DNA from: an uncultured cyanobacterium
GTDB taxonomy: Bacteria > Cyanobacteriota > Cyanobacteriia > Cyanobacteriales > Geitlerinemataceae
Assembly (NCBI GenBank): GCA_937899645.1
Contig: CALCCD010000125.1
Location: forward strand, 1 to 36,445
DNA: 36,445 nucleotides
Direction: 5' to 3'
The position numbers and the translations under genes were made by a program. Positions within the stretch are counted from its first letter, which is position 1. Each line of letters begins with the position of its first letter. Positions 1,586 to 35,626 of this stretch are shown piece after piece. The notes beneath the pieces were generated by a model. It did not search any database and had not been told where the DNA came from. It worked only from the letters and a program-made list of their open reading frames with translations.

Positions 1586-2971
1586 TTACGCAGCTAACAC
1601 GTCATTGGCCGTCGCTTCGCCTGATGCACACGCCCCTTCCATGTAGCCTCTCCACACACGTGACAGTTGGCTTCCGGCCCAGTAAATACGTCCGCAGGGT
1701 TGCCAGAGGCGATCGCCAATAGCGGTGAGTGTTCCAGGCGTCATGTAGGCACAGGAACCACCTTGCGACCAAGGTTCAGCACCCCACTGCTTGACCACCA
1801 TCTGCACAGGATTTCGCGCCTGTTCGCCCAGCGATTTAGCGGCCAAGTCGAGAATAATTTGGTCACGCTCGGCCTCCGTGGCCGCGTTGTCTATCTCGAT
1901 CGCGGGCTCTCCGCCAAATAGAACCGTAATAGCGCCGCGCTTCGAGCCAATATCTCCTAGATCGAAAATTCCGGTCATGCTGCCATCTAGGCTGGTAACA
2001 ATGCCCGAGAGTCCTTGTTCTCTCCAGAAAGGCGTTTCGTACGTAAGAAGAGCCTTCGAGTATCGGCCCATGGGGCAACGCTGATGGAACTCGCGGCGGT
2101 AGGCGGGCAGCATCGGCTCAAATTCAATCCGATTAATCAACGTCGGTTGCAAAGCGCAGATAACGTGCTTGCCGCGCCAAGTGCTTCGATCGCATTCCAC
2201 AGTGACCCCTTGGGCATCTTGCAAGATGCGGCGAACGGGTGAGCTGAGCGAGACCACCCCATTAATTGTTGAAGCTAGGCCTTCAGAGACGAGCTGACTG
2301 CCCATCATATGGGCGGACTGGCCACCTGTTTCAGTGTCAGCCATGGTGAAAATATCACCGCAACTCTTGAAGAGATGCATCGTTTCAAGACAGGAGATTT
2401 CTTCGGCCCGGACACCAAAGAAAGCACTCGTACTAGAGATCCACGACTGGCGCAATTTCGGGGACTCAACGTTTTGAGCTACCCAGGTGGCGAAGGTCAT
2501 TGAGTCGAACTCGTAAGCCTTCTCGTGAGCCCACGGCGCGTCAAGATCCAAATTAGCTGTCTCGCCCTGAAACTTAGCCATGACAGTTTGCAGTTCTGGG
2601 AGTACTGATTCCATCCCAGGAAAGCTGCCCACTTCGCCCACGTAGCGAGCGTCTCCATCAATGGCTAACTCTTTGCCGGTGGTGTACTGCGGCACGAGCG
2701 GCACATTAAATTCTTGAATCAGCGCCTGCATCCGCGTGTGCATTTCAGCGACCCAGGTGGCACCCAAATCTAAATGCTTACCAAGATACTCACTGTATTC
2801 AGAACAGGTCAGCCCTCCGACGCGATCTCTGGCTTCTAGCACAGCAACGCGCTGCCCCGCCTGAGACAATACCCGCGCCGCGTACAGTCCAGATAATCCT
2901 GCGCCAACAACGATGGTGTCAAAAACGGTTTGTTCTACTGATGTGCTCTGAGCAAATTGATTTTGAGTCAT
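1586..2971 (-). CDS. Flavin monoamine oxidase family protein (FAD-dependent)
   Basis: A 461-residue FAD-dependent amine oxidase of the MAO / L-amino-acid oxidase superfamily, expected to oxidise an amine to an imine with H2O2 production in the cytosol. The N-terminus carries the dinucleotide-binding motif VVGAGLSGLYAARVL (about residues 21-35) followed by LEARDRVGG, the standard FAD signature. The C-terminus has RIYWAGSQLSRVWRGYMEGA, matching the second FAD contact (usually GT-E/hydrophobic-GYMEGA). Length is normal for the family. The start has AGGA a few bases upstream. It opens a minus-strand row with the SRPBCC and MDR genes, divergent from a TetR gene, which suggests TetR control and a shared small-molecule pathway. 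Substrate cannot be read from the sequence. Confidence 0.85.
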   Translation of the reverse strand: MTQNQFAQSTSVEQTVFDTIVVGAGLSGLYAARVLSQAGQRVAVLEARDRVGGLTCSEYSEYLGKHLDLGATWVAEMHTRMQALIQEFNVPLVPQYTTGKELAIDGDARYVGEVGSFPGMESVLPELQTVMAKFQGETANLDLDAPWAHEKAYEFDSMTFATWVAQNVESPKLRQSWISSTSAFFGVRAEEISCLETMHLFKSCGDIFTMADTETGGQSAHMMGSQLVSEGLASTINGVVSLSSPVRRILQDAQGVTVECDRSTWRGKHVICALQPTLINRIEFEPMLPAYRREFHQRCPMGRYSKALLTYETPFWREQGLSGIVTSLDGSMTGIFDLGDIGSKRGAITVLFGGEPAIEIDNAATEAERDQIILDLAAKSLGEQARNPVQMVVKQWGAEPWSQGGSCAYMTPGTLTAIGDRLWQPCGRIYWAGSQLSRVWRGYMEGACASGEATANDVLAA

Positions 2972-2994
2972 GACTGTCCTCGAAAAATCTACAA

Positions 2995-3074
2995 CCGACG
3001 AATTTAAATAAATCCTACAGTCGGTGAATTTATTTTGTCAAGGTATATTCTGCGATTGATGAATTTATTTTGCT
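2995..3074. promoter_or_regulatory. Cluster of direct and inverted repeats between amine oxidase and tetR (candidate TetR operators)
   Basis: GAATTTA occurs three times (3000-3006, 3026-3032, 3061-3067). The preceding bases are related (ACCGAC, CAGTCGGT, GCGATTGAT). GTGAATTTATTTTG and ATGAATTTATTTTG are near-identical copies 35 bases apart. Overlaid is an inverted repeat AAATAAATCC (3006-3015) / GAATTTATTT (3026-3035), 9 of 10 pairing, inside outer arms CCGAC (2995-2999) / GTCGG (3020-3024). The location in a divergent promoter beside a TetR gene makes autoregulation the natural inference. Confidence 0.5.
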
Positions 3075-3155
3075 AATCCGCTTTGACGTCGTGTACGCTC
3101 AAAAAGAAGTCGCGCGCGATCGCGTAACAATCGTGCGCCATAGGAGCTGTGTGTA

Positions 3156-3752
3156 ATGGGACGGAAAAGCCTAGCTGCCGAGCGAAAAACGGATATACTC
3201 AACGCCTTCGAGCAGTGCATCCTAGAGCGGGGGATTGAAGGCACTTCGTTTCAGCACATCGCCCAGGTGCTCGGGATGGACCGAAAAATGGTCAGCCACT
3301 ACTTTGGGAATAGAGAAGCGCTGGTTGATGCGATGACCCAGCGAATCGTTGGTGATTTTAACGCGCGGATGAATGAGGCAACGGCAAATCTAGCTCCATC
3401 GATGGATGTCATGGAACTCGTGGATGCGTTTTACGACGAGCAACACTGCACTGAAGAAATTGAAATACTTTGGGCGGAAATCCTTGCTTACGCAACAAGA
3501 TCTGAGGCTGTGCGAGGGTGCCTTCGTCAAAGCTACGATAAGATGCTCCAATCTGTAGGAGAGGCGATAAAGCAAGAGTATCCAAGCGCGCCTACAAGAC
3601 AGTTTCAGGCAGCAGTCTATACAGTTACTATCCTGCTCGATCGCGCGTCTACGTTTGAATGGCTCGGAGTAAAGGGCTCTCCAATCAAGGATGCAAAGGC
3701 CGCGATTAAAGAAGTGCTAAGGAGCTTGGAAGGCTCTATCGAAGAAAAGTAG
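3156..3752 (+). CDS. TetR/AcrR family transcriptional regulator
   Basis: A 198-residue one-component repressor. The N-terminal helix-turn-helix is clear: ILNAFEQCILERGIEGTSFQHIAQVLGMDRKMVSHYFGNREALVDAM, about residues 15-61, with the recognition helix at MDRKMVSHYFG. The remaining helices would form the ligand-binding and dimerisation domain, whose sequence is not family-specific. The ATG has AGGAG at 3142-3146, nine bases upstream, which fixes the start. It is divergent from the amine oxidase row with a 184-bp gap full of repeats, so it most likely represses that row and itself and is released by a substrate of the pathway. The ligand is unknown. Confidence 0.88.
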   Translation: MGRKSLAAERKTDILNAFEQCILERGIEGTSFQHIAQVLGMDRKMVSHYFGNREALVDAMTQRIVGDFNARMNEATANLAPSMDVMELVDAFYDEQHCTEEIEILWAEILAYATRSEAVRGCLRQSYDKMLQSVGEAIKQEYPSAPTRQFQAAVYTVTILLDRASTFEWLGVKGSPIKDAKAAIKEVLRSLEGSIEEK

Positions 3753-3775
3753 AGCGAGAATGTAGGAGTCAGCTT

Positions 3776-4027
3776 CTAAATTTCCCATCTGTAGCCCATG
3801 CCACCCCATTCAAAGGGAAGCATTTCCAAGACGGCATCATCTTGCTTAACGTGCGTTGGTACTGTCGCTACTCCCTGAGCGATCGGGATTTGGCAGAGAG
3901 ATGGTGGGCGCTGGCCGCTTAAAGGGGCTTCTGCGTCGGCCGCACCATCACACAGCTCGTAACGACTCTGGCTATCGTATGAAGACAGGAACTCCGAAAG
4001 GCTGACGCGAGTTGCGATCGTAACCAT
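3776..4027 (-). pseudogene. Uma2-family (DUF820) N-terminal remnant
   Basis: An 83-codon minus-strand frame begins MVTIATRVSLSEFLSSYDSQ followed by SRYELCDG, which is the start of a Uma2-family protein (a hydrophobic first strand, then the xxYELxDG motif). After that, the PD-(D/E)XK core (PDxxV, ExxSP, the GVxEYW stretch) is absent and the frame stops after about 53 unrelated residues. Uma2 proteins are normally about 180-220 residues. It therefore looks like a broken copy or a fusion to unrelated sequence. It faces away from recG, whose start is 32 bases beyond. Whether anything is still translated is unknown. Confidence 0.45.
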
Positions 4028-4058
4028 TCGACATGCCGGAAGACTGCATCTCAATCGT

Positions 4059-6686
4059 ATGAGCGAGCCCGTTTCGCGACCGACCGGAGACCTGCGTATC
4101 ATGATGGAAAGCCCCCAACGCACGCCGCCCGTGACCGATCGCGCCGCCCCTGCCCAAAGTCAGCAAGCTCCGCCCGACTGGCCGCGCTGGCAAAAAGCCC
4201 TCAGCGTCGAAGCCGAAACCGGCTTTGGCAACCTGATGGGGCGACAGTCGCGCTTTAACGCTTTCCTTGCGAGCTGCTTCGCTGACCCCGCCGAAGGCTT
4301 GACCGACCACGATCGCGATCGCTGGCAAAGCCTCGCCGATCGCTTCCGCGACTACGACGCCCTCACCGCCAGCAAGCGCCAACAGCTCGTCGCCGATGCC
4401 CGCCGCACCATCCTGCGATCGCAGCGTCAAATCGACAGCTACCGCGAAAAGCAGCGCCGCGCCACCGACAATAAACCCGCCAACTACATCAACGAAAACG
4501 GCGCGAGCTACACCAGTCAAACCAACAAAAGCGCCCGCACTAAATCCGTCGCCACCACCGCCAAGGTCCACCGCCTCACCGACGAACTGGCCTACATCAA
4601 AGGCGTCGGCCCCAAGAACAGCGATCGCCTCGCCCGCCTCGGTCTCTACACCGTCCGCGACCTGCTCTACTACTTCCCCCGCGACCACATCGACTACGCC
4701 CGCCAGGTCAAAATCCACGACCTCCACGCAGGCGACACCGTTACTGTGATTGGCCGCGTCGATCGCTTCGGCTTCTTCGACAGCAGCAAAAATCGCCACC
4801 TGACGATTATGCAGATGACGATTAGCGACGAAACCGGCAAGCTCAAAATCAGCCGCTTCTACGCTGGGCAGCGCTACTCGAAAAAGTGGCAGTACGCGCA
4901 GCGATCGAAGTATCCGAAAGGCGCGATCGTCGCCGCGTCGGGCATCGTCAAACGCGACAAATACGGCCTGACGCTCGATTCGCCGGAGCTGGAGCTGCTC
5001 GACGACGCCTACGGGGAAATCGAGTCGATGCATATCGGGCGGCTGTTGCCGGTGTACCCGCTGACCGAGGGCGTCGGTGCGGATTTGGTGCGGCGGACGA
5101 TCGCGGCAGCACTGCCCACAGCGGCAAGCCTGCGCGATCCGCTGCCGGTGGCGTTGCGCGATGCTTGCGACCTGATGCCGCTGCCCGAGGCGATCGCCCA
5201 GATCCACTTCCCCGACGATCGCGACATCCTCAGTCACGCCCGCAAGCGACTGGTGTTCGACGAATTCTTCTACCTTCAGCTCGGTCTGCTGAAACGCCGC
5301 AACGAACTACGCCAGGGTCAGGCCGGAATGACGGAAGCTGCTGCCCTGACCACGCGCGGCGAACTGATCGAGCGCTTCTACAACCTGTTGCCCTTCTCGA
5401 TGACGGGGGCACAATCGCGCGTCATCGATGAAATCCTCCACGATCTCGGGCAGTCTTCCGCGATGAACCGGCTGGTGCAGGGCGACGTGGGCGCAGGAAA
5501 AACGGTGGTGGCGGTAGTGGCGATCTTGGCGGCGATCCAATCTGGCTATCAGGCGGCGCTGATGGCTCCGACGGAGGTGCTGGCCGAACAGCACTACCGC
5601 AAGCTGGCCGACTGGCTGACCCAGCTCAATTTGCCGGTGGAGCTGCTGACCGGTTCGGTGGGCGTAAAGAAGCGGCGATCGATCCACCAACAGCTCGAAA
5701 CCGGCGAGCTGCCGGTGTTGGTGGGAACCCACGCGCTGATTCAGGACAAAGTGAAATTCCACCGCCTCGGCCTCAGCGTCATCGACGAGCAGCACCGCTT
5801 CGGCGTCCAGCAACGCGGCACGCTCCAGCGCAAGGGCGAGAACGGCGTCTGCCACGTCCTCTCGATGACCGCGACGCCGATTCCACGCACGCTAGCGCTA
5901 ACGCTGCACGGCGACCTCGATGTCAGCCAAATCGACGAGCTACCACCGGGACGCAAACCGATTCAGACTACCGTTTTAACCTCGAAGGAGCGACAGAACG
6001 CTTACGAGCTGATTCGCCGCGAGGTGGCGCAGGGGCGGCAGACCTATGTGGTGTTGCCACTGGTGGAGGAGTCGGAAAAGCTGGATTTACGATCGGCCAC
6101 CGAAGAGCACGATCGCCTCCAGCAGGTATTTCCCGACTTCGCGATCGGGCTGCTGCACGGGCGGATGAGTTCGGCGGAGAAAGATGCGGCGATCGAGGCA
6201 TTCCGCAAAAACGAGACGCAAATCCTCGTCTCCACTACTGTCATCGAAGTCGGGGTAGACGTGCCGAATGCATCGGTGATGCTGATCGAACATGCCGAGC
6301 GCTTCGGCCTCTCGCAGCTCCACCAGCTGCGCGGGCGGGTCGGGCGTGGCGCAGATACGGCGTTTTGCCTGCTGATGACGAAGCCGAAAGCCTCGAGTGA
6401 CGCTCAACAGCGGCTGAAGGTGATGGAGGAGTCTCAGGACGGGTTTTATCTGGCGGAGATGGACATGCAGTTGCGTGGCCCCGGTGAGGTTTTGGGGACG
6501 CGGCAGTCGGGTTTGCCGGATTTTGCGCTGGCGAGTTTGGTGGACGATCGCGAGGCGCTGATCCTGGCGCGATCGATGGCGGAAAAGACGATCGAGGCCG
6601 ATCCAGAGTTGGCGCAAACGCCGCTGCTGGCGCAGGCAGTGGAGGAGCGCTTCGTGGCGCTGATGGGGGGCACGGCGCTGACGTAG
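4059..6686 (+). CDS. recG: ATP-dependent DNA helicase RecG
   Basis: Branched-DNA translocase that remodels stalled replication forks and Holliday junctions. From the N-terminus: a poorly conserved basic extension (about 1-170), the wedge/OB-fold region beginning LAYIKGVGPKNSDRLARLGL, then the helicase. Visible motifs are Walker A GDVGAGKT near 475, the Walker B variant DEQHRFG at about 576, TATPIPRTLALTLHGDLDVS, and in the second RecA lobe STTVIEVGVDVPNAS and QLRGRVGRG. The C-terminal RecG-specific tail is present. The 875 residues exceed the E. coli protein (about 690), but cyanobacterial RecG usually carries such an extension. The ATG pair at 4101/4104 is an alternative start. Its last ~180 bases are duplicated downstream of the following Uma2 gene. 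Confidence 0.95.
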   Translation: MSEPVSRPTGDLRIMMESPQRTPPVTDRAAPAQSQQAPPDWPRWQKALSVEAETGFGNLMGRQSRFNAFLASCFADPAEGLTDHDRDRWQSLADRFRDYDALTASKRQQLVADARRTILRSQRQIDSYREKQRRATDNKPANYINENGASYTSQTNKSARTKSVATTAKVHRLTDELAYIKGVGPKNSDRLARLGLYTVRDLLYYFPRDHIDYARQVKIHDLHAGDTVTVIGRVDRFGFFDSSKNRHLTIMQMTISDETGKLKISRFYAGQRYSKKWQYAQRSKYPKGAIVAASGIVKRDKYGLTLDSPELELLDDAYGEIESMHIGRLLPVYPLTEGVGADLVRRTIAAALPTAASLRDPLPVALRDACDLMPLPEAIAQIHFPDDRDILSHARKRLVFDEFFYLQLGLLKRRNELRQGQAGMTEAAALTTRGELIERFYNLLPFSMTGAQSRVIDEILHDLGQSSAMNRLVQGDVGAGKTVVAVVAILAAIQSGYQAALMAPTEVLAEQHYRKLADWLTQLNLPVELLTGSVGVKKRRSIHQQLETGELPVLVGTHALIQDKVKFHRLGLSVIDEQHRFGVQQRGTLQRKGENGVCHVLSMTATPIPRTLALTLHGDLDVSQIDELPPGRKPIQTTVLTSKERQNAYELIRREVAQGRQTYVVLPLVEESEKLDLRSATEEHDRLQQVFPDFAIGLLHGRMSSAEKDAAIEAFRKNETQILVSTTVIEVGVDVPNASVMLIEHAERFGLSQLHQLRGRVGRGADTAFCLLMTKPKASSDAQQRLKVMEESQDGFYLAEMDMQLRGPGEVLGTRQSGLPDFALASLVDDREALILARSMAEKTIEADPELAQTPLLAQAVEERFVALMGGTALT

Positions 6687-6701
6687 CTCGAGCCGTTGAA
6701 A

Positions 6702-7376
6702 CTAAAGCTGGGCGTCGCGAGCCTGGAGGCCGTCCTGGAGCGATCGCAGCACTGCCGCCATATCGCCAGAGAGCACGGCGCTGGCGTTGAGCCACAGGCC
6801 CGGAAACTCTCGGCTTTTCAGGATGCCCACTTCGTCGGGCTCCAAGTTTTCATATTGTCCGTTTTGCCAGATAAACCAGTCGATCGCGCCGTCTAAGGTT
6901 CGCCAGACGATGTATTCTTTAGCGCCATTGCGTTCGTAGGCTTGCTTCTTGTCGTGGAGGTCGTAGGAGGTGGTGCTGGCGGCAATTTCGACGATCAGTT
7001 CGGGCGCGCCTGCGATGTAGCCGTCTGGGTCGATCGCGGCGCTGCCCCCTTCGCGAAACAGGGCGATGTCGGGCTGCGGTTCGTTGTCGTTGTCGAGGCG
7101 GACGGTGGGCTCGATGCCGAGTCGGCAGGCTGATGTACTGGCTTGATACACGCCGAGCCAGGTGAGGAGCTGGCCGTGGGGTTCGGCGTGGGGAGTGAAG
7201 CGGAGCGGAGAGGCCACGTAGACAGTTCCTTCGATAAGTTCGGCTTTTTTGACGTGAGGGGTGGCGGTGTAGCGGCGCTCGAATTCGGGGCGGTGGAGGC
7301 GATCGCCGTTCTCCAGGGGAACGATCGGGATTTCTCGTGTGGTGCTAGAGGACGCAGTTTGGTTGGTGGCGACCAT
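6702..7376 (-). CDS. Uma2 family protein (putative PD-(D/E)XK nuclease)
   Basis: A 224-residue member of the Uma2 (DUF820) family, very common in cyanobacteria and predicted from its fold to be a restriction-endonuclease-like nuclease; its biological role is unproven. Landmarks: AELIEGTVYVASP near 45, QPDIALFREGG near 101 (first catalytic acid), APELIVEIAASTTSYDLHDKKQAYERNGAKEYIVW near 127-160 (second acid, conserved Lys and the aromatic motif). The core is complete and the length normal, so it may be functional. It is convergent with recG, ending 15 bases after the recG stop, and is followed on the other side by a decayed recG tail, so it sits inside a duplicated recG end. Confidence 0.85.
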   Translation of the reverse strand: MVATNQTASSSTTREIPIVPLENGDRLHRPEFERRYTATPHVKKAELIEGTVYVASPLRFTPHAEPHGQLLTWLGVYQASTSACRLGIEPTVRLDNDNEPQPDIALFREGGSAAIDPDGYIAGAPELIVEIAASTTSYDLHDKKQAYERNGAKEYIVWRTLDGAIDWFIWQNGQYENLEPDEVGILKSREFPGLWLNASAVLSGDMAAVLRSLQDGLQARDAQL

Positions 7377-7434
7377 ATGCTTGGCCTCGGGTGGTGTTCG
7401 GACGGCTTTGTTTCACTCAGTCTAGACGAGGGCG

Positions 7435-7616
7435 ATTCGGCGTCTGGCGAGCTTGTGGGATTTGGCGATTGCGAAGCACCGATCTTGGCGCGATCGATGC
7501 TAGAAGAGACCCTCGAGGCCGACGAGGCCAAACTGATTTTGGCGCAGGCGCTTTAGGCTGGCGAAGGCTGCGAAGGAGCAATTTGTGGCGCTGATGGGCG
7601 GCACGGCGCTGATGCG
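7435..7616 (+). pseudogene. Decayed duplicate of the recG 3' end
   Basis: Translating the plus strand gives EAPILARSMLEETLEADEAK and then LILAQAL before a stop; after a frame change it continues AKEQFVALMGGTAL. The genuine RecG C-terminus reads EALILARSMAEKTIEADPEL, LLAQAVEERFVALMGGTAL. At base level GTGGCGCTGATGGG and GGCACGGCGCTGA are shared with 6654-6681. The copy has a premature stop and an indel, has no upstream helicase, and is separated from intact recG by the Uma2 gene. It is non-functional as a helicase fragment. Confidence 0.8.
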
Positions 7617-7667: not shown

Positions 7668-8630
7668 CTATGGCTCGAACTCTTCGCACTTTCCGCCGAG
7701 GTTTTTGGCGATCGAGCAGGTGTTGCTCACGAGCATCTTGATATAGGAGTCGCCATCGCTACCCGGTGCACCGATCGAGTCCGAGTACAGCATCGGCTCA
7801 GCCAATGCGACGCCCGCTTCCCGTGCGACAGTTTCGATGAGCTCCGGTGCGATCGTCGTTTCTGCAAAAATCGCCGGGACGCCCGCCGCACGAACTGCCT
7901 CCACGAGCTGCTGTACCGTCTGGGCGCTGGGTTGCTCCTCGGTGCTGATGCCGATTAGCGTGCCGATGACTTCTAGGCCGTAGGCATCGGCGTAGTACTG
8001 GAAGGCGTCGTGGGTCGTGACGATCGCGCGCACATCCTCCGGGATCGTCTCGATTTGCGCGCCGATCCAGCCGTCGAGGCGCTCTAGCTCGGCGATCAGC
8101 GCGTCGGCATTGGCCGCGAAAATCTCGGCGTCCTCCGGTTCCAGCTCGCTGAGCGAATCGCGCACTTGCTCGACCATGACAATCGCGTTTTCCACGTCGC
8201 CCCAGACGTGCGGGTCGGGGACGCTCTGGCCGTCTTCGTCCATTTCCAGCGGCTCGACGGTCTCGTTCAGCGCCAGGTACGGCACGCCGCTGCCCGCCCC
8301 GACGACCAGATCGATCAGCGCTGGTTCCAGGTTATGGCCGCCCACGAAGACGAAATCCGCCTGCTCGATCGTCAGGCTGTCGAGCGGGACGGGCTCGTAG
8401 ACGTGCGGGTCGTCTCCGGCCTCGAGCAGGCTTTGCAAGTCGATTTCCTCGCCACCGACGCGCGCCACCAGGTCGGCGACGATCGTATTGGTCGCGACCA
8501 CGTTGGGCTTTTCGGGGTCGTCCTCTAAAATTTCCGTGCCGCCACCGCAGGCTGCCGTCGCTAGTGCCAGCGTCAGCACCAGTGCGCGACCGAACCAGTC
8601 TTTACTGGATGCTCTGCCAAAGGTTTTCAT
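7668..8630 (-). CDS. Metal (Mn/Zn) ABC transporter substrate-binding lipoprotein, TroA/ZnuA family
   Basis: Cluster A-I solute-binding protein that captures Mn2+ or Zn2+ outside the cytoplasmic membrane. It opens with a basic N-terminus, a hydrophobic stretch and the lipobox LATAAC (about residues 23-28), giving a lipidated Cys28. Candidate metal ligands are in DPHVYEP (about 74-80), PHVWGD (about 142-147), THDAFQYY (third His) and YSDSIG (Asp near the C-terminus). The His-His-His-Asp pattern resembles TroA; the cyanobacterial MntC and PsaA type has Glu at the third place, so metal specificity is open. The STEEQPSAQ loop and IFAETTI strand are typical. It is divergent from the ATPase gene with a shared ~96-bp control region. 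No membrane permease gene is visible nearby. Confidence 0.88.
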   Translation of the reverse strand: MKTFGRASSKDWFGRALVLTLALATAACGGGTEILEDDPEKPNVVATNTIVADLVARVGGEEIDLQSLLEAGDDPHVYEPVPLDSLTIEQADFVFVGGHNLEPALIDLVVGAGSGVPYLALNETVEPLEMDEDGQSVPDPHVWGDVENAIVMVEQVRDSLSELEPEDAEIFAANADALIAELERLDGWIGAQIETIPEDVRAIVTTHDAFQYYADAYGLEVIGTLIGISTEEQPSAQTVQQLVEAVRAAGVPAIFAETTIAPELIETVAREAGVALAEPMLYSDSIGAPGSDGDSYIKMLVSNTCSIAKNLGGKCEEFEP

Positions 8631-33522: not shown

Positions 33523-34164
33523 ATGACCTGCACGATCGAGCTACGAAAAATCGACATCGCCCCCGGCCAGGTGCTGACCCTGCGCGAGATCGACTGGGCG
33601 GAGTTCGATCGCATTGCGGCGGCGCTGGGCGATCGCCGGACGCCGCGTCTGACCTATTCTCACAGCGCTCTCCAGCTTCGTATGCCTTCCCCAGAACACG
33701 AATCGATCGCCCGGCTGTTGGGTATGCTGGTGACAGTGTGGCTAGAGGCGCTGGACTGTGACTGGGTGTGTCTGGGTTCGACGACGTTTCGCAACGAGGC
33801 GGCGGGGGTCGGGGTGGAGCCGGACGACTGTTTTTATCTGACGAATCTCGATCGCGTTGTCGGGAAGGCGCGATTGGGGGCAGGCGACCCGCCACCGGAT
33901 CTGGCGATCGAGGTGGACATCACGTCGCCGAGTTCGCTGCCAGTGTATTCAGCGCTGGGCGTTCGGGAGGTGTGGCGCTATCGCGATGGGCGGCTGGAGT
34001 TTTGGGTGTTGGCGGCGGGGAAATATCGCTCGGTTGCGGAGAGTGAGGTATGTACGGGGTTGCCGGTGGCGGTGGTGTCGGCGGCGGTGGCGCGGTTGGG
34101 GTCGGAGCCGATGAGTCGGATTCGGCGGGAGTTTGCGGACTGGGTGGGCGATCGGTTGGGGTGA
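33523..34164 (+). CDS. Uma2 family protein (putative PD-(D/E)XK nuclease)
   Basis: A 213-residue Uma2 (DUF820) protein of the subgroup that reads VGVEPDDCFYL (first acidic site, about 102-112) and PPDLAIEVDITSPSSLPVYS (second site, about 125-144), then ALGVREVWRYRDGRLEFWVL. The N-terminus has LRMPSPEHESIARLLGMLVT, the usual opening helix. The canonical catalytic lysine is not placed where the gene at 6702 has it, which is usual for this subgroup. It lies 39 bases after the ATPase gene and 54 bases before the first antitoxin, all on the plus strand. Nuclease activity is a fold-based prediction; Uma2 proteins are abundant in cyanobacteria without a proven role. Confidence 0.85.
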   Translation: MTCTIELRKIDIAPGQVLTLREIDWAEFDRIAAALGDRRTPRLTYSHSALQLRMPSPEHESIARLLGMLVTVWLEALDCDWVCLGSTTFRNEAAGVGVEPDDCFYLTNLDRVVGKARLGAGDPPPDLAIEVDITSPSSLPVYSALGVREVWRYRDGRLEFWVLAAGKYRSVAESEVCTGLPVAVVSAAVARLGSEPMSRIRREFADWVGDRLG

Positions 34165-34218: not shown

Positions 34219-34485
34219 ATGTCTGAAGTTTCGCTGAATTGGAAGCCGGATGCGGAGACGCTGCACGGTTTGATGCAGATTGCGGTCGATCGGCATTGTT
34301 CGCTGGAGTCGGTGCTGGAAGAGGCGATCGCGATGTACCTAGACGAACAGCTCAGTTCGCCGCTCCCGCCCGAGTCTGACCCCATGGTTGGTCTATTCTC
34401 GGGGTCGCCGGATCTCAGCGAGCAAACGGAAGAGATTTTAGAGGCAGGTGCGATCGAGGAGGCAGGCGTGCCGTGCCAAGGATAA
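34219..34485 (+). CDS. Antitoxin, VapB-like
   Basis: A small acidic protein (88 residues from ATG 34219; an in-frame start at 34198 adds seven). MSEVSLNWKPDAETLHGLMQ, IAVDRHCSLESVLEEAIAMY and LDEQL look like a ribbon-helix-helix type DNA-binding domain, with one short strand and two helices. The C-terminal half, PPESDPMVGLFSGSPDLSEQ onward, is acidic and flexible, as expected for a toxin-neutralising tail. The last 13 bases overlap the following PIN-domain gene, the standard VapBC layout. Identification rests mainly on this position. It would neutralise the toxin and repress the operon. Confidence 0.7.
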   Translation: MSEVSLNWKPDAETLHGLMQIAVDRHCSLESVLEEAIAMYLDEQLSSPLPPESDPMVGLFSGSPDLSEQTEEILEAGAIEEAGVPCQG

Positions 34486-34892
34486 CGGCGGTTGTGGATA
34501 CGGGGTTTGTGGTTGCGTTGCTGAACGATCGCGATCGCAACCATCAGGCCGCAGCCCGAACGTACAGCCAGCAGGGTGTCATCGCTATGTCACAAACGGT
34601 GCTCTCCGAGGCGGCGTATATGTTGAGGCTGCGGACGAATCGAGATCGTGTGGTGCAGTGGCTACGAGCGTTTCGGGTTAGCCGGTATCAGGTAACGCCG
34701 GTCACGCAGGTCGATCTGGATCGCGTGGCGGATATTTTGGAGCAGTACCGCGACAGTCGGATTGATTTTGTCGATGCAAGTGTGATGGCGGTGGCGGAGC
34801 GGTTGGGGGTATGTCGGATTTTGACGCTCGATCGCCGCGATTTCGGGTTGTTTCGTCCGCGCCACTGCGAGTCGTTTGAGATTTTGCCGTAG
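34473..34892 (+). CDS. vapC: PIN-domain toxin, VapC-like
   Basis: A 139-residue ribonuclease toxin of the PIN fold. The acidic catalytic quartet is visible: Asp9 in TAVVDTGFVVALL, Glu45 in VLSEAAYML, Asp98/Asp101 in IDFVDASVMAVAERL, and Asp in ILTLDRRDFG. PIN toxins cleave tRNA or rRNA when freed from their antitoxin. The GTG start at 34473 overlaps the antitoxin gene by 13 bases and is preceded by GAGGAGG (34456-34462), ten bases upstream, so translational coupling is likely. Intact and probably functional. Exact target unknown. Confidence 0.9.
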   Translation: MPRITAVVDTGFVVALLNDRDRNHQAAARTYSQQGVIAMSQTVLSEAAYMLRLRTNRDRVVQWLRAFRVSRYQVTPVTQVDLDRVADILEQYRDSRIDFVDASVMAVAERLGVCRILTLDRRDFGLFRPRHCESFEILP

Positions 34893-34928
34893 TGATAGAT
34901 TTGGAAAATAACCAGCAGACTTAAGCCG

Positions 34929-35213
34929 ATGACGCCCCACGAAACGACGTTTGCGAAATTACAGCAGCTTCCGGCCTCGATGCTGCCGACGGTCGATCGC
35001 TTTCTCGATTCGCTGCTCGATTCGGTGGAAGACCCGGAAGCGACAGCTCCAGCGGATGTAAACCAGCCGGATATCAGAGATTTGCTGCGTTGGATCGAAG
35101 AAGTGGAGAACCTCGAGATCGATCCGCAGGGAGTGGCGAGAGCGCGGGAGCACGAGGATGAGTTTGGGGAGGCTTTGGTTGAGAAGTATCGCAAGCTGGG
35201 GCTGGATTTGTGA
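34929..35213 (+). CDS. Antitoxin of the second PIN pair (VapB-like)
   Basis: A 94-residue protein with an N-terminal helical segment TFAKLQQLPASMLPTVDRFL, then DSLLDSVEDPEATAPADVNQ and RDLLRWIEEVENLEIDPQGV. The start resembles DUF2281/YefM-like small antitoxins often placed before PIN toxins. The acidic middle and C-terminal tail EFGEALVEKYRKLGLDL fit toxin binding. Its stop codon overlaps the next gene by four bases (GTGA at 35210-35213), classic for coupled toxin-antitoxin genes. It is unrelated in sequence to the antitoxin at 34219, so these are two independent modules rather than a duplication. Confidence 0.7.
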   Translation: MTPHETTFAKLQQLPASMLPTVDRFLDSLLDSVEDPEATAPADVNQPDIRDLLRWIEEVENLEIDPQGVARAREHEDEFGEALVEKYRKLGLDL

Positions 35214-35626
35214 TTCTCTGCGATACGAGTGTGTTGCTGTGTTTGGTAGACCGGAGCCAACTGCGCCATGCATCTTGCATTCGCGCGATCGTCAATCTCC
35301 GCAAGCCTCTGGTAACGACTTGGCCTTGTCTGACTGAGGCGATGCATCTTGCGCTGCGTTCTGGCGGCTGGCCGATGCAGCGTCAGCTCGGGGAATTATT
35401 GCTGGATGGCTGGCTGACGGCGTATGCCATCGACGAGGATCTGTTTCCGAGAATTCTGGAGCTAATGGAGCGGTATCGCGATCGCCCGATGGATTTTGCG
35501 GATGCGAGTCTGGTGTTAGTGGCGGAGCGGACGGGCTATCGGCAAATTTTGACGCTGGATTCGGATTTTTTCTTTTATCGGATTGATGGCAGGGAGAGTT
35601 TTGAGGTTTTGCCTGTGGATGGGTAG
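35210..35626 (+). CDS. vapC: PIN-domain toxin, VapC-like
   Basis: A 138-residue PIN-domain ribonuclease. Catalytic acids: Asp5 in LCDTSVLLCL, Glu in PCLTEAMHLALRSGG, Asp in MDFADASLVLVAERTG, and Asp in ILTLDSDFFFYR. The C-terminus GRESFEVLPVDG is the usual ending of this VapC subgroup and resembles that of the toxin at 34473 (CESFEILP). GTG start coupled to the antitoxin stop. The two VapC proteins share motifs (DASxxxVAER, ILTLD) but differ otherwise. Probably active as a growth inhibitor held in check by the upstream antitoxin. Confidence 0.9.
   Translation: MILCDTSVLLCLVDRSQLRHASCIRAIVNLRKPLVTTWPCLTEAMHLALRSGGWPMQRQLGELLLDGWLTAYAIDEDLFPRILELMERYRDRPMDFADASLVLVAERTGYRQILTLDSDFFFYRIDGRESFEVLPVDG

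What the first reader, a model, noticed from the sequence alone, without database searches (positions are those of the whole stretch)
6484..7616. Uma2 gene enclosed between recG and a decayed second copy of the recG 3' end
The intact recG tail (to 6686) and the sequence at 7435-7616 translate to aligned peptides (EALILARSMAEKTIEAD / EAPILARSMLEETLEAD and VALMGGTAL in both). The downstream copy has an internal stop and a frame change. A complete minus-strand Uma2 gene lies exactly between. This looks like an insertion that rebuilt or duplicated the recG end, or a tandem duplication later invaded, and may show how Uma2 genes spread: a gene that carries a host-gene tail and leaves the host reading frame intact.
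Basis: seen in the sequence. Interest (0 to 1): 0.6.

Follow-up and report, generated by a model that had tools for sequence, protein, structure and literature searches.

The report
Uma2 gene beside displaced recG tail
In this cyanobacterium a small nuclease-like gene sits between the intact recG gene and a broken second copy of recG's last 160 bases, most likely the scar of foreign DNA that entered by pairing with the end of a conserved gene; similar scars enclose other toxin- or defence-like genes, so they may show how such genes build up.

Summary
Window 6519-6681 (recG end) and 7434-7612 are homologous: score 106 against a maximum of 32 in 1000 shuffles. A complete minus-strand Uma2 gene (6702-7376) lies between. 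Two congeners have one recG end and no close relative of this Uma2.

It is not unique. In 1.22 Mb of this genome I kept eight gene ends with an orphan copy beyond enclosed genes. Four enclose Uma2; others a Fic/Doc gene, a nucleotidyltransferase or a weak reverse-transcriptase match. Scars in two related genomes enclose XisHI, PIN and ParE genes.

In the seven cases other than recG the two ends differ mainly at third codon positions (44 of 65; about 45% expected for an in-place neutral copy; p 2e-4). This suggests two functional alleles brought together. recG itself (11 of 26) does not decide. An Anabaena recG locus joins one relative's haplotype on the left to another's on the right.

Best reading: donor DNA with a recG end plus Uma2 entered by one-sided homology and displaced the resident tail. 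The architecture is known as 'insertion with long target duplication'; Uma2 is frequent cargo here, not shown to be the driver.

The parts
4059..6686 (+). recG, intact, 875 aa; anchor gene
   Evidence: ORF and RecG_wedge, DEAD, Helicase_C, RecG_dom3_C matches
6519..6681 (+). T: end of the intact recG, repeated downstream
   Evidence: alignment far above shuffles
6687..7433 (.). inserted segment between the two tails (747 nt)
   Evidence: limits from the alignment; absent after recG in two congeners
6702..7376 (-). Uma2 gene, 224 aa, complete
   Evidence: PF05685, 106.1 bits against cut-off 27
7434..7612 (+). T': orphan, decayed second copy of the recG end
   Evidence: alignment; in-frame stop and frame change; 19 unique changes against 3 in T
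7668..8630 (-). znuA-type gene, present neighbour of the orphan tail
   Evidence: PF01297, 267.6 bits; followed by a trkA-like gene in both congeners

Best explanation
The structure is the scar of an additive DNA acquisition by one-sided homology. Donor DNA from a closely related cell, carrying the end of its own recG followed by Uma2, paired with the resident recG and recombined inside it. The other end was joined without long homology about 160 bases before the resident stop codon. The resident recG body therefore now ends in the donor tail (T) followed by the donor neighbour Uma2. The displaced resident tail (T') remains as an orphan before its old neighbour, here znuA, and has decayed. Two routes fit: a small circle carrying a recG end plus Uma2 integrated by one crossover (insertion-duplication), or homology-facilitated illegitimate recombination (HFIR) of a linear piece. 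No dedicated recombinase is needed, recG stays intact and no neighbour is lost. Shown: the repeat, absence of Uma2 and of a second tail after recG in two congeners, recurrence of the architecture, third-position bias in the sister cases, a two-haplotype chimera at recG in Anabaena. Inferred: that the recG/Uma2 case arose in this way, which tail is the donor's, and circle versus linear DNA.
For: 1) T and T' share 15 states against both congeners, while T' has 19 unique changes and T has 3, of 162 sites: they separated after the genus split and T' then lost constraint. 2) Congeners G001 and G002 have one recG end and other downstream genes; this Uma2 has no relative at E<=1e-20 in either. 3) In the same genome seven other gene ends (radical-SAM, murJ, thrS, GFO/IDH oxidoreductase, cofH-like, two small ORFs) have an orphan copy beyond enclosed genes, at 82-96% identity. 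4) Without recG, 44 of 65 T/T' differences are third-position against about 45% expected for a neutral in-place copy (p 2e-4); other genomes 23 of 37, p 0.027, with two of the eight rows sharing one T. 5) Anabaena UHCC 0187 (L079): recG - p422 gene - recG tail' - small gene. L105 has recG-p422 with one tail (93% over 3.8 kb); L052 and L074 have one recG tail followed directly by the flank that in L079 lies beyond tail', and L107 shares the start of that flank. 6) G002 has the architecture at the radical-SAM start with another enclosed ORF. 7) A ComEC-type gene is present. 8) In E. coli small non-replicating donor DNA gave duplications of a lacZ end, 109-950 bp in 14 sequenced clones, attributed to single crossovers (PMC3240628, passages).
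Against: For recG itself 11 of 26 differences are third-position, as expected of an in-place copy, so this locus alone cannot decide. No genome with recG directly followed by this Uma2 was found: of 388 genomes searched with the junction DNA, 107 had matches, and only the three of this genus matched the recG-tail part. By my own profile one of 108 recG loci (97 distinct) had a Uma2 within 4 kb, at 2.1 kb, but that profile missed L107, where Pfam finds Uma2 0.6 kb after recG. No empty site with recG directly before znuA was found. At the radical-SAM gene the T-side upstream sequence, not the T'-side, matches G002, which does not fit 'T' is resident' without a further rearrangement; thrS flanks gave no empty site. 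The homology of all eight G000 repeats ends within 12 nt of a gene terminus, but the rule demanded 20 nt, so this is partly built in; in other genomes repeats pass the stop by 41 nt (L417) and 58 nt (L399). Third-position bias is absent in L334 (1 of 4), L417 (2 of 4), L421 (3 of 7) and L396 Uma2 part (0 of 2). The codon test ignores mutation bias.
Confidence: 0.55

Rival explanations
1. Insertion with long target duplication in the strict sense: Uma2 entered recG's end and both tails derive from one resident target, copied during repair of a long staggered break, possibly one made by a nuclease such as Uma2.
For: Repeat length of order 100 bp as described for restriction-modification genes (PMC3874152, passage). 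Uma2 is annotated as a putative restriction endonuclease. recG's own differences fit a decaying in-place copy. Uma2 is over-represented as cargo in this genome.
Against: Third-position bias in the other seven cases; T linked to its flank in a separate haplotype in Anabaena; many enclosed genes are not nucleases.
Confidence: 0.22
2. Tandem duplication of the recG end first, Uma2 insertion between the copies later.
For: T and T' are sisters against both congeners; direct repeats are far commoner than inverted ones near Uma2 genes (25 against 1 listed pairs).
Against: Sequences after the two tails are unrelated, and it needs two independent events at each of several loci; no locus with a duplicated end and no cargo was seen, though none was sought directly.
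Confidence: 0.13
3. Remnant of a site-specific integrative element that used the recG 3' end as attachment site and carried a replacement end, as some phages do in housekeeping genes (recalled).
For: Geometry: intact end on one side, orphan end on the other. A repeat around a tRNA-Val gene in L319 shows that such elements may exist in this genome.
Against: One gene enclosed and no integrase at recG; different gene ends and no common core at the eight loci.
Confidence: 0.04

Closest known systems
Insertion with long target duplication (Nobusato et al. 2000, original not held; known through passages of PMC1643837, PMC3154945, PMC3874152)
   Same: A gene flanked by direct repeats of order 100 bp; cargo in those reports is restriction-modification genes, and Uma2 is annotated as a putative restriction endonuclease.
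   Different: Cargo here is a solitary Uma2 gene (elsewhere Fic/Doc, XisHI, PIN, ParE, nucleotidyltransferase genes); several repeat pairs look like two alleles, not one copied target.
Homology-facilitated illegitimate recombination and insertion-duplication by single crossover (PMC3240628, passages)
   Same: A homologous side and an illegitimate joint; partial duplication of a gene end with new DNA between.
   Different: Those are laboratory events with selectable DNA; here the process is inferred from scars of 45-185 nt.
Displacement of T6SS effector genes leaving orphan immunity genes in Vibrio (PMC5361080, passages)
   Same: A new module anchored in conserved sequence, the old downstream part displaced and kept; the authors propose a process akin to HFIR.
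   Different: There the anchor is the secretion cluster itself; here unrelated housekeeping genes serve as anchors.
Small variable segments flanked by direct repeats (PMC2884548, passages)
   Same: About 10-18% of variable segments in three bacterial species are flanked by direct repeats, so flanking repeats are not rare.
   Different: There the repeats are read as a route of deletion; here as displaced gene ends.

Membership tests
Uma2 family (PF05685) | Profile match above the curated cut-off | tested here: met
   106.1 bits against 27, residues 31-198
Uma2 family (PF05685) | Endonuclease activity | not testable with these tools
   no assay
Insertion with long target duplication | Direct repeat of about 100 bp on both sides of the inserted gene | tested here: met
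   163 against 179 nt at recG; 45-185 aligned nt in the other seven cases
Insertion with long target duplication | Empty site in a close relative: one repeat copy with both flanks | tested here: inconclusive
   congeners have one recG end but other downstream genes; an empty-type site was seen only for the Anabaena case
Insertion with long target duplication | Both copies derive from one target sequence | tested here: inconclusive
   third-position bias argues against it in the other seven cases (44 of 65); recG alone (11 of 26) fits it
HFIR or insertion-duplication | Homologous side: T found with its flank in a donor haplotype | tested here: inconclusive
   seen in Anabaena (L105 against L079); no donor found for recG-Uma2
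HFIR or insertion-duplication | Illegitimate joint on the other side | tested here: inconclusive
   abrupt inner end of T' at about 7434; donor unknown, so microhomology cannot be read
Site-specific integrative element | Linked integrase and common attachment core | tested here: not met
   one gene enclosed, no integrase; different gene ends at each locus

The most novel reading that the evidence does not exclude
Gene-end capture is a major route by which cyanobacteria accumulate dozens of Uma2, toxin-antitoxin, XisHI, PIN and similar genes. Small DNA pieces bearing a short end of any conserved gene plus a cargo gene integrate by one crossover at that gene, and can do so again at the same end (L387 has three tail copies with two sets of cargo between them). 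The orphan ends are datable scars that record each arrival and its donor allele.
Probability: 0.33. Interest if true: 0.7.

Novelty: new member of a known kind. Interest (0 to 1): 0.5.

Why it matters
Uma2 genes are among the much-repeated genes of these cyanobacteria (57 hits in this genome, 14-97 in seven relatives). The paper listings I saw on Uma2 or DUF820 showed no title or abstract on how they arrive. If orphan gene ends mark arrivals, each scar gives the anchor gene, the insertion point and, through T against T', the donor allele. The spread of defence-like genes then becomes testable by a repeat scan across genomes.

Tried and rejected
Chance: rejected by shuffles. Another recG-tail copy on C44: a short match in an open frame that I take for aroA. 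Assembly error: not credible at about 80% identity with indels (judgement). Uma2-only mechanism: rejected as the sole reading, since other genes are enclosed too. Site-specific element: no integrase, no common core.

Pairs in G000 that passed the rule but were dropped by eye: L322, L342:3706-8359 (repeated domains in long ORFs) and L328 (several overlapping repeats, content unresolved); 11 passed, 8 kept. Not passing but possibly of this kind: L326, a 70% intergenic repeat around one gene, and L319, which is a repeat of part of a tRNA-Val gene. In loci from other genomes 8 pairs passed in 246 loci; only L079 was kept. L061 and its duplicate L130 are a repeat outside recG, L139 a short-period repeat; L058 (two pairs) and L156 have repeats of 341-723 nt at 69%, taken as paralogues without further work. 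In G004 and G007, 74 pairs lay outside a single ORF and 8 passed. I inspected 11 pairs, of which six had not passed the rule; the passing L388 and second L405 pairs were not followed up. My own Uma2 profile missed members. The recG-Uma2 junction DNA found no donor in 388 genomes.

Weak points of the counts. The Fisher test counts about 8 non-Uma2 enclosed genes by hand, including an unresolved ORF in the cofH gap, against a scripted ORF count of 1039 (391 + 648), an undercount of genes. Set A (420 kb) was chosen around Uma2 genes, set B (800 kb, two regions overlapping by 4 kb) to avoid them, so only gene-level counts are compared. The first test gave 2 of 52 Uma2 loci and 7 of 238 control ORFs, no enrichment; it used a 120-nt pad and 2.5-kb flanks and missed murJ and thrS; four of its seven control hits rest on repeats of 45 nt or less. 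The rule was made afterwards.
Full report
THE OBSERVATION. The two recG-tail sequences are homologous well beyond chance (score 106; shuffle mean 19.4, maximum 32 of 1000). Refined limits are 6519-6681 and 7434-7612. The enclosed ORF 6702-7376 minus is a Uma2 domain protein over nearly the full profile. The copy has an in-frame stop and a frame change. The genome, G000, has 4.55 Mb in 134 contigs, and the stretch occurs once in it.

RELATIVES. recG was found in 38 of 39 genomes including its own. In congener L033/G001 the tail is followed by a minus-strand transporter-like gene and in L034/G002 by a response-regulator-like region (names recalled from sequence). Neither shows a second tail or a Uma2 there, though L034 ends 0.7 kb after recG. 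The window Uma2 has relatives at E<=1e-20 in 25 of 39 genomes including its own, not in the two congeners; the best is 67% identical, in another family. znuA, which follows the copy in the window, is followed by a trkA-like gene in both congeners; the G000 trkA-like gene lies on contig C49. In G004, G007, G008 and G010, same-family genomes in at most 8 contigs, recG and znuA lie about 0.9 Mb or more apart. recG/znuA adjacency was thus not seen elsewhere and looks like a rearrangement of this lineage.

AGE. Across 162 aligned sites with both congeners, 15 are shared by T and T' against both, 19 are unique to T' and 3 unique to T. The two tails separated after the genus split, and T' then changed much faster.

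IT RECURS. Of 57 Uma2 hits 52 had testable flanks; a first test found recG and radical-SAM only (2 of 52; controls 7 of 238). A uniform rule was then run on 49 Uma2-centred stretches (420 kb) and 40 stretches without Uma2 (800 kb). Eleven pairs passed; three were dropped by eye. The eight kept are recG; a radical-SAM gene (5' end, 95.6%); murJ (last 45 nt with stop codon, 91%); thrS; a GFO/IDH oxidoreductase; a cofH-like gene; a 116-aa ORF; a 165-aa ORF. Enclosed are Uma2 at recG, radical-SAM and murJ, and Uma2 plus an RTX-repeat gene at thrS; a membrane protein at the oxidoreductase; a weak reverse-transcriptase match (below Pfam's cut-off) at cofH; a nucleotidyltransferase plus a small ORF at the 116-aa ORF; Fic/Doc plus a neighbouring small ORF at the 165-aa ORF. 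At gene level Uma2 is enclosed in 4 of 57 cases and other ORFs in about 8 of 982 (p 0.003; without the seed case 3 of 56, p 0.018). Forty Uma2-centred stretches of G004 and G007 gave further cases with XisH/XisI, PIN, ParE, nucleotidyltransferase and ParA-like cargo; at L396, L417 and L421 Uma2 is the gene whose tail is repeated.

WHERE THE HOMOLOGY STOPS. In G000 the eight repeats end from 12 nt inside to 4 nt beyond the gene's stop or start codon. If the two ends come from two genomes whose intergenic sequences differ, this is expected. But the rule asked for 20 nt, so the closeness is partly built in; the unfiltered lists held few candidates with intergenic repeats (L326). In other genomes the limits are -4 (L079), -19 (L387), +5 (L407), -13 (L421), +41 (L417) and +58 (L399), so it is no general law.

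TWO ALLELES. Under in-place duplication a neutral T' and a constrained T give about 45% third-position differences (computed for three genes). Seven cases without recG give 44 of 65 (p 2e-4). Other genomes give 23 of 37 (p 0.027), two of the eight rows sharing one T. recG alone gives 11 of 26. At thrS, T' keeps two amino acids of congener G001 that T has changed (read from the alignment). The test ignores mutation bias.

A CASE CAUGHT HALFWAY. Among 80 recG loci from named genomes Anabaena UHCC 0187 (L079) has recG - p422 gene - 69-bp tail copy with stop (94%) - small gene. L105 has recG-p422 at 93% over 3.8 kb and a single tail. L052 and L074 have a single recG tail followed directly by the flank that in L079 lies after the copy; L107 shares the start of that flank. 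So L079 joins two haplotypes at recG with one abrupt joint. Which haplotype was resident is inferred from the commoner flank.

MECHANISM. One-sided homology with an illegitimate joint explains the intact host gene, the donor-type flank after T, the resident flank after T', the short repeat and the variety of cargo. Experiments in E. coli gave gene-end duplications of 109-950 bp from small donor DNA, attributed by the authors to single crossovers (PMC3240628, passages read). A process akin to HFIR has been proposed for displaced effector genes in Vibrio (PMC5361080, passages read). A ComEC-type gene is present in G000, which is compatible with DNA uptake but no proof.

WHAT IS KNOWN. The architecture is that of 'insertion with long target duplication', reported for restriction-modification genes in H. 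pylori (PMC1643837, PMC3154945 and PMC3874152, passages read; the original paper was not read). Direct repeats flank 10-18% of small variable segments in three other species (PMC2884548, passages), so flanking repeats as such are common. Searches for Uma2 with cyanobacteria, DUF820 with horizontal, and toxin-antitoxin with cyanobacteria and partial duplication (listings, and passages of one paper) showed no paper on this for Uma2; subscription journals are mostly not in that library.

LIMITS. No donor and no empty site was found for the recG/Uma2 locus itself; the radical-SAM locus does not fit a simple resident/donor assignment; several sister cases rest on one genome; the enrichment of Uma2 is post hoc and modest.

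Noticed in passing
L387 (G004) 1957-3903: Three copies of one gene's tail (2103-2258, 2774-2873, 3748-3903) with a 148-aa ORF and then XisI/XisH between them: apparently two successive insertions at the same gene end.
   Followed up: partly
L396 (G004) 3022-3390 and 3969-4568: A ParE-type toxin ORF ends in nearly the same C-terminal residues as the neighbouring Uma2 protein, as if the joint had fused the tail to it.
   Followed up: no
L275 (G002) 2198-2850: Congener G002 has the same architecture at the radical-SAM start, with a small antitoxin-like ORF (only a weak TraY match, below cut-off) instead of Uma2.
   Followed up: partly
L342 12804-15471: A 301-aa ORF with a weak reverse-transcriptase match lies between a cofH-like gene end and its orphan copy; possibly a retron.
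   Followed up: no
L319 1796-1853 and 5361-5418: A 58-bp direct repeat (83%) of part of a tRNA-Val gene (5365-5436 minus, ARAGORN) on the two sides of a 695-aa gene, like an island in a tRNA gene.
   Followed up: partly
window 34473-35560: A 95-bp repeat (75%) between the tail region of a PIN-like ORF (recognised by eye) and a place 0.7 kb on, near the window's second Uma2 (33595-34035).
   Followed up: no
L223 4003-5553: The 45-bp murJ tail copy also encodes, antisense, the C-terminus of the next ORF, and what looks like a decayed second Uma2 follows it: both convergent genes keep an end.
   Followed up: partly
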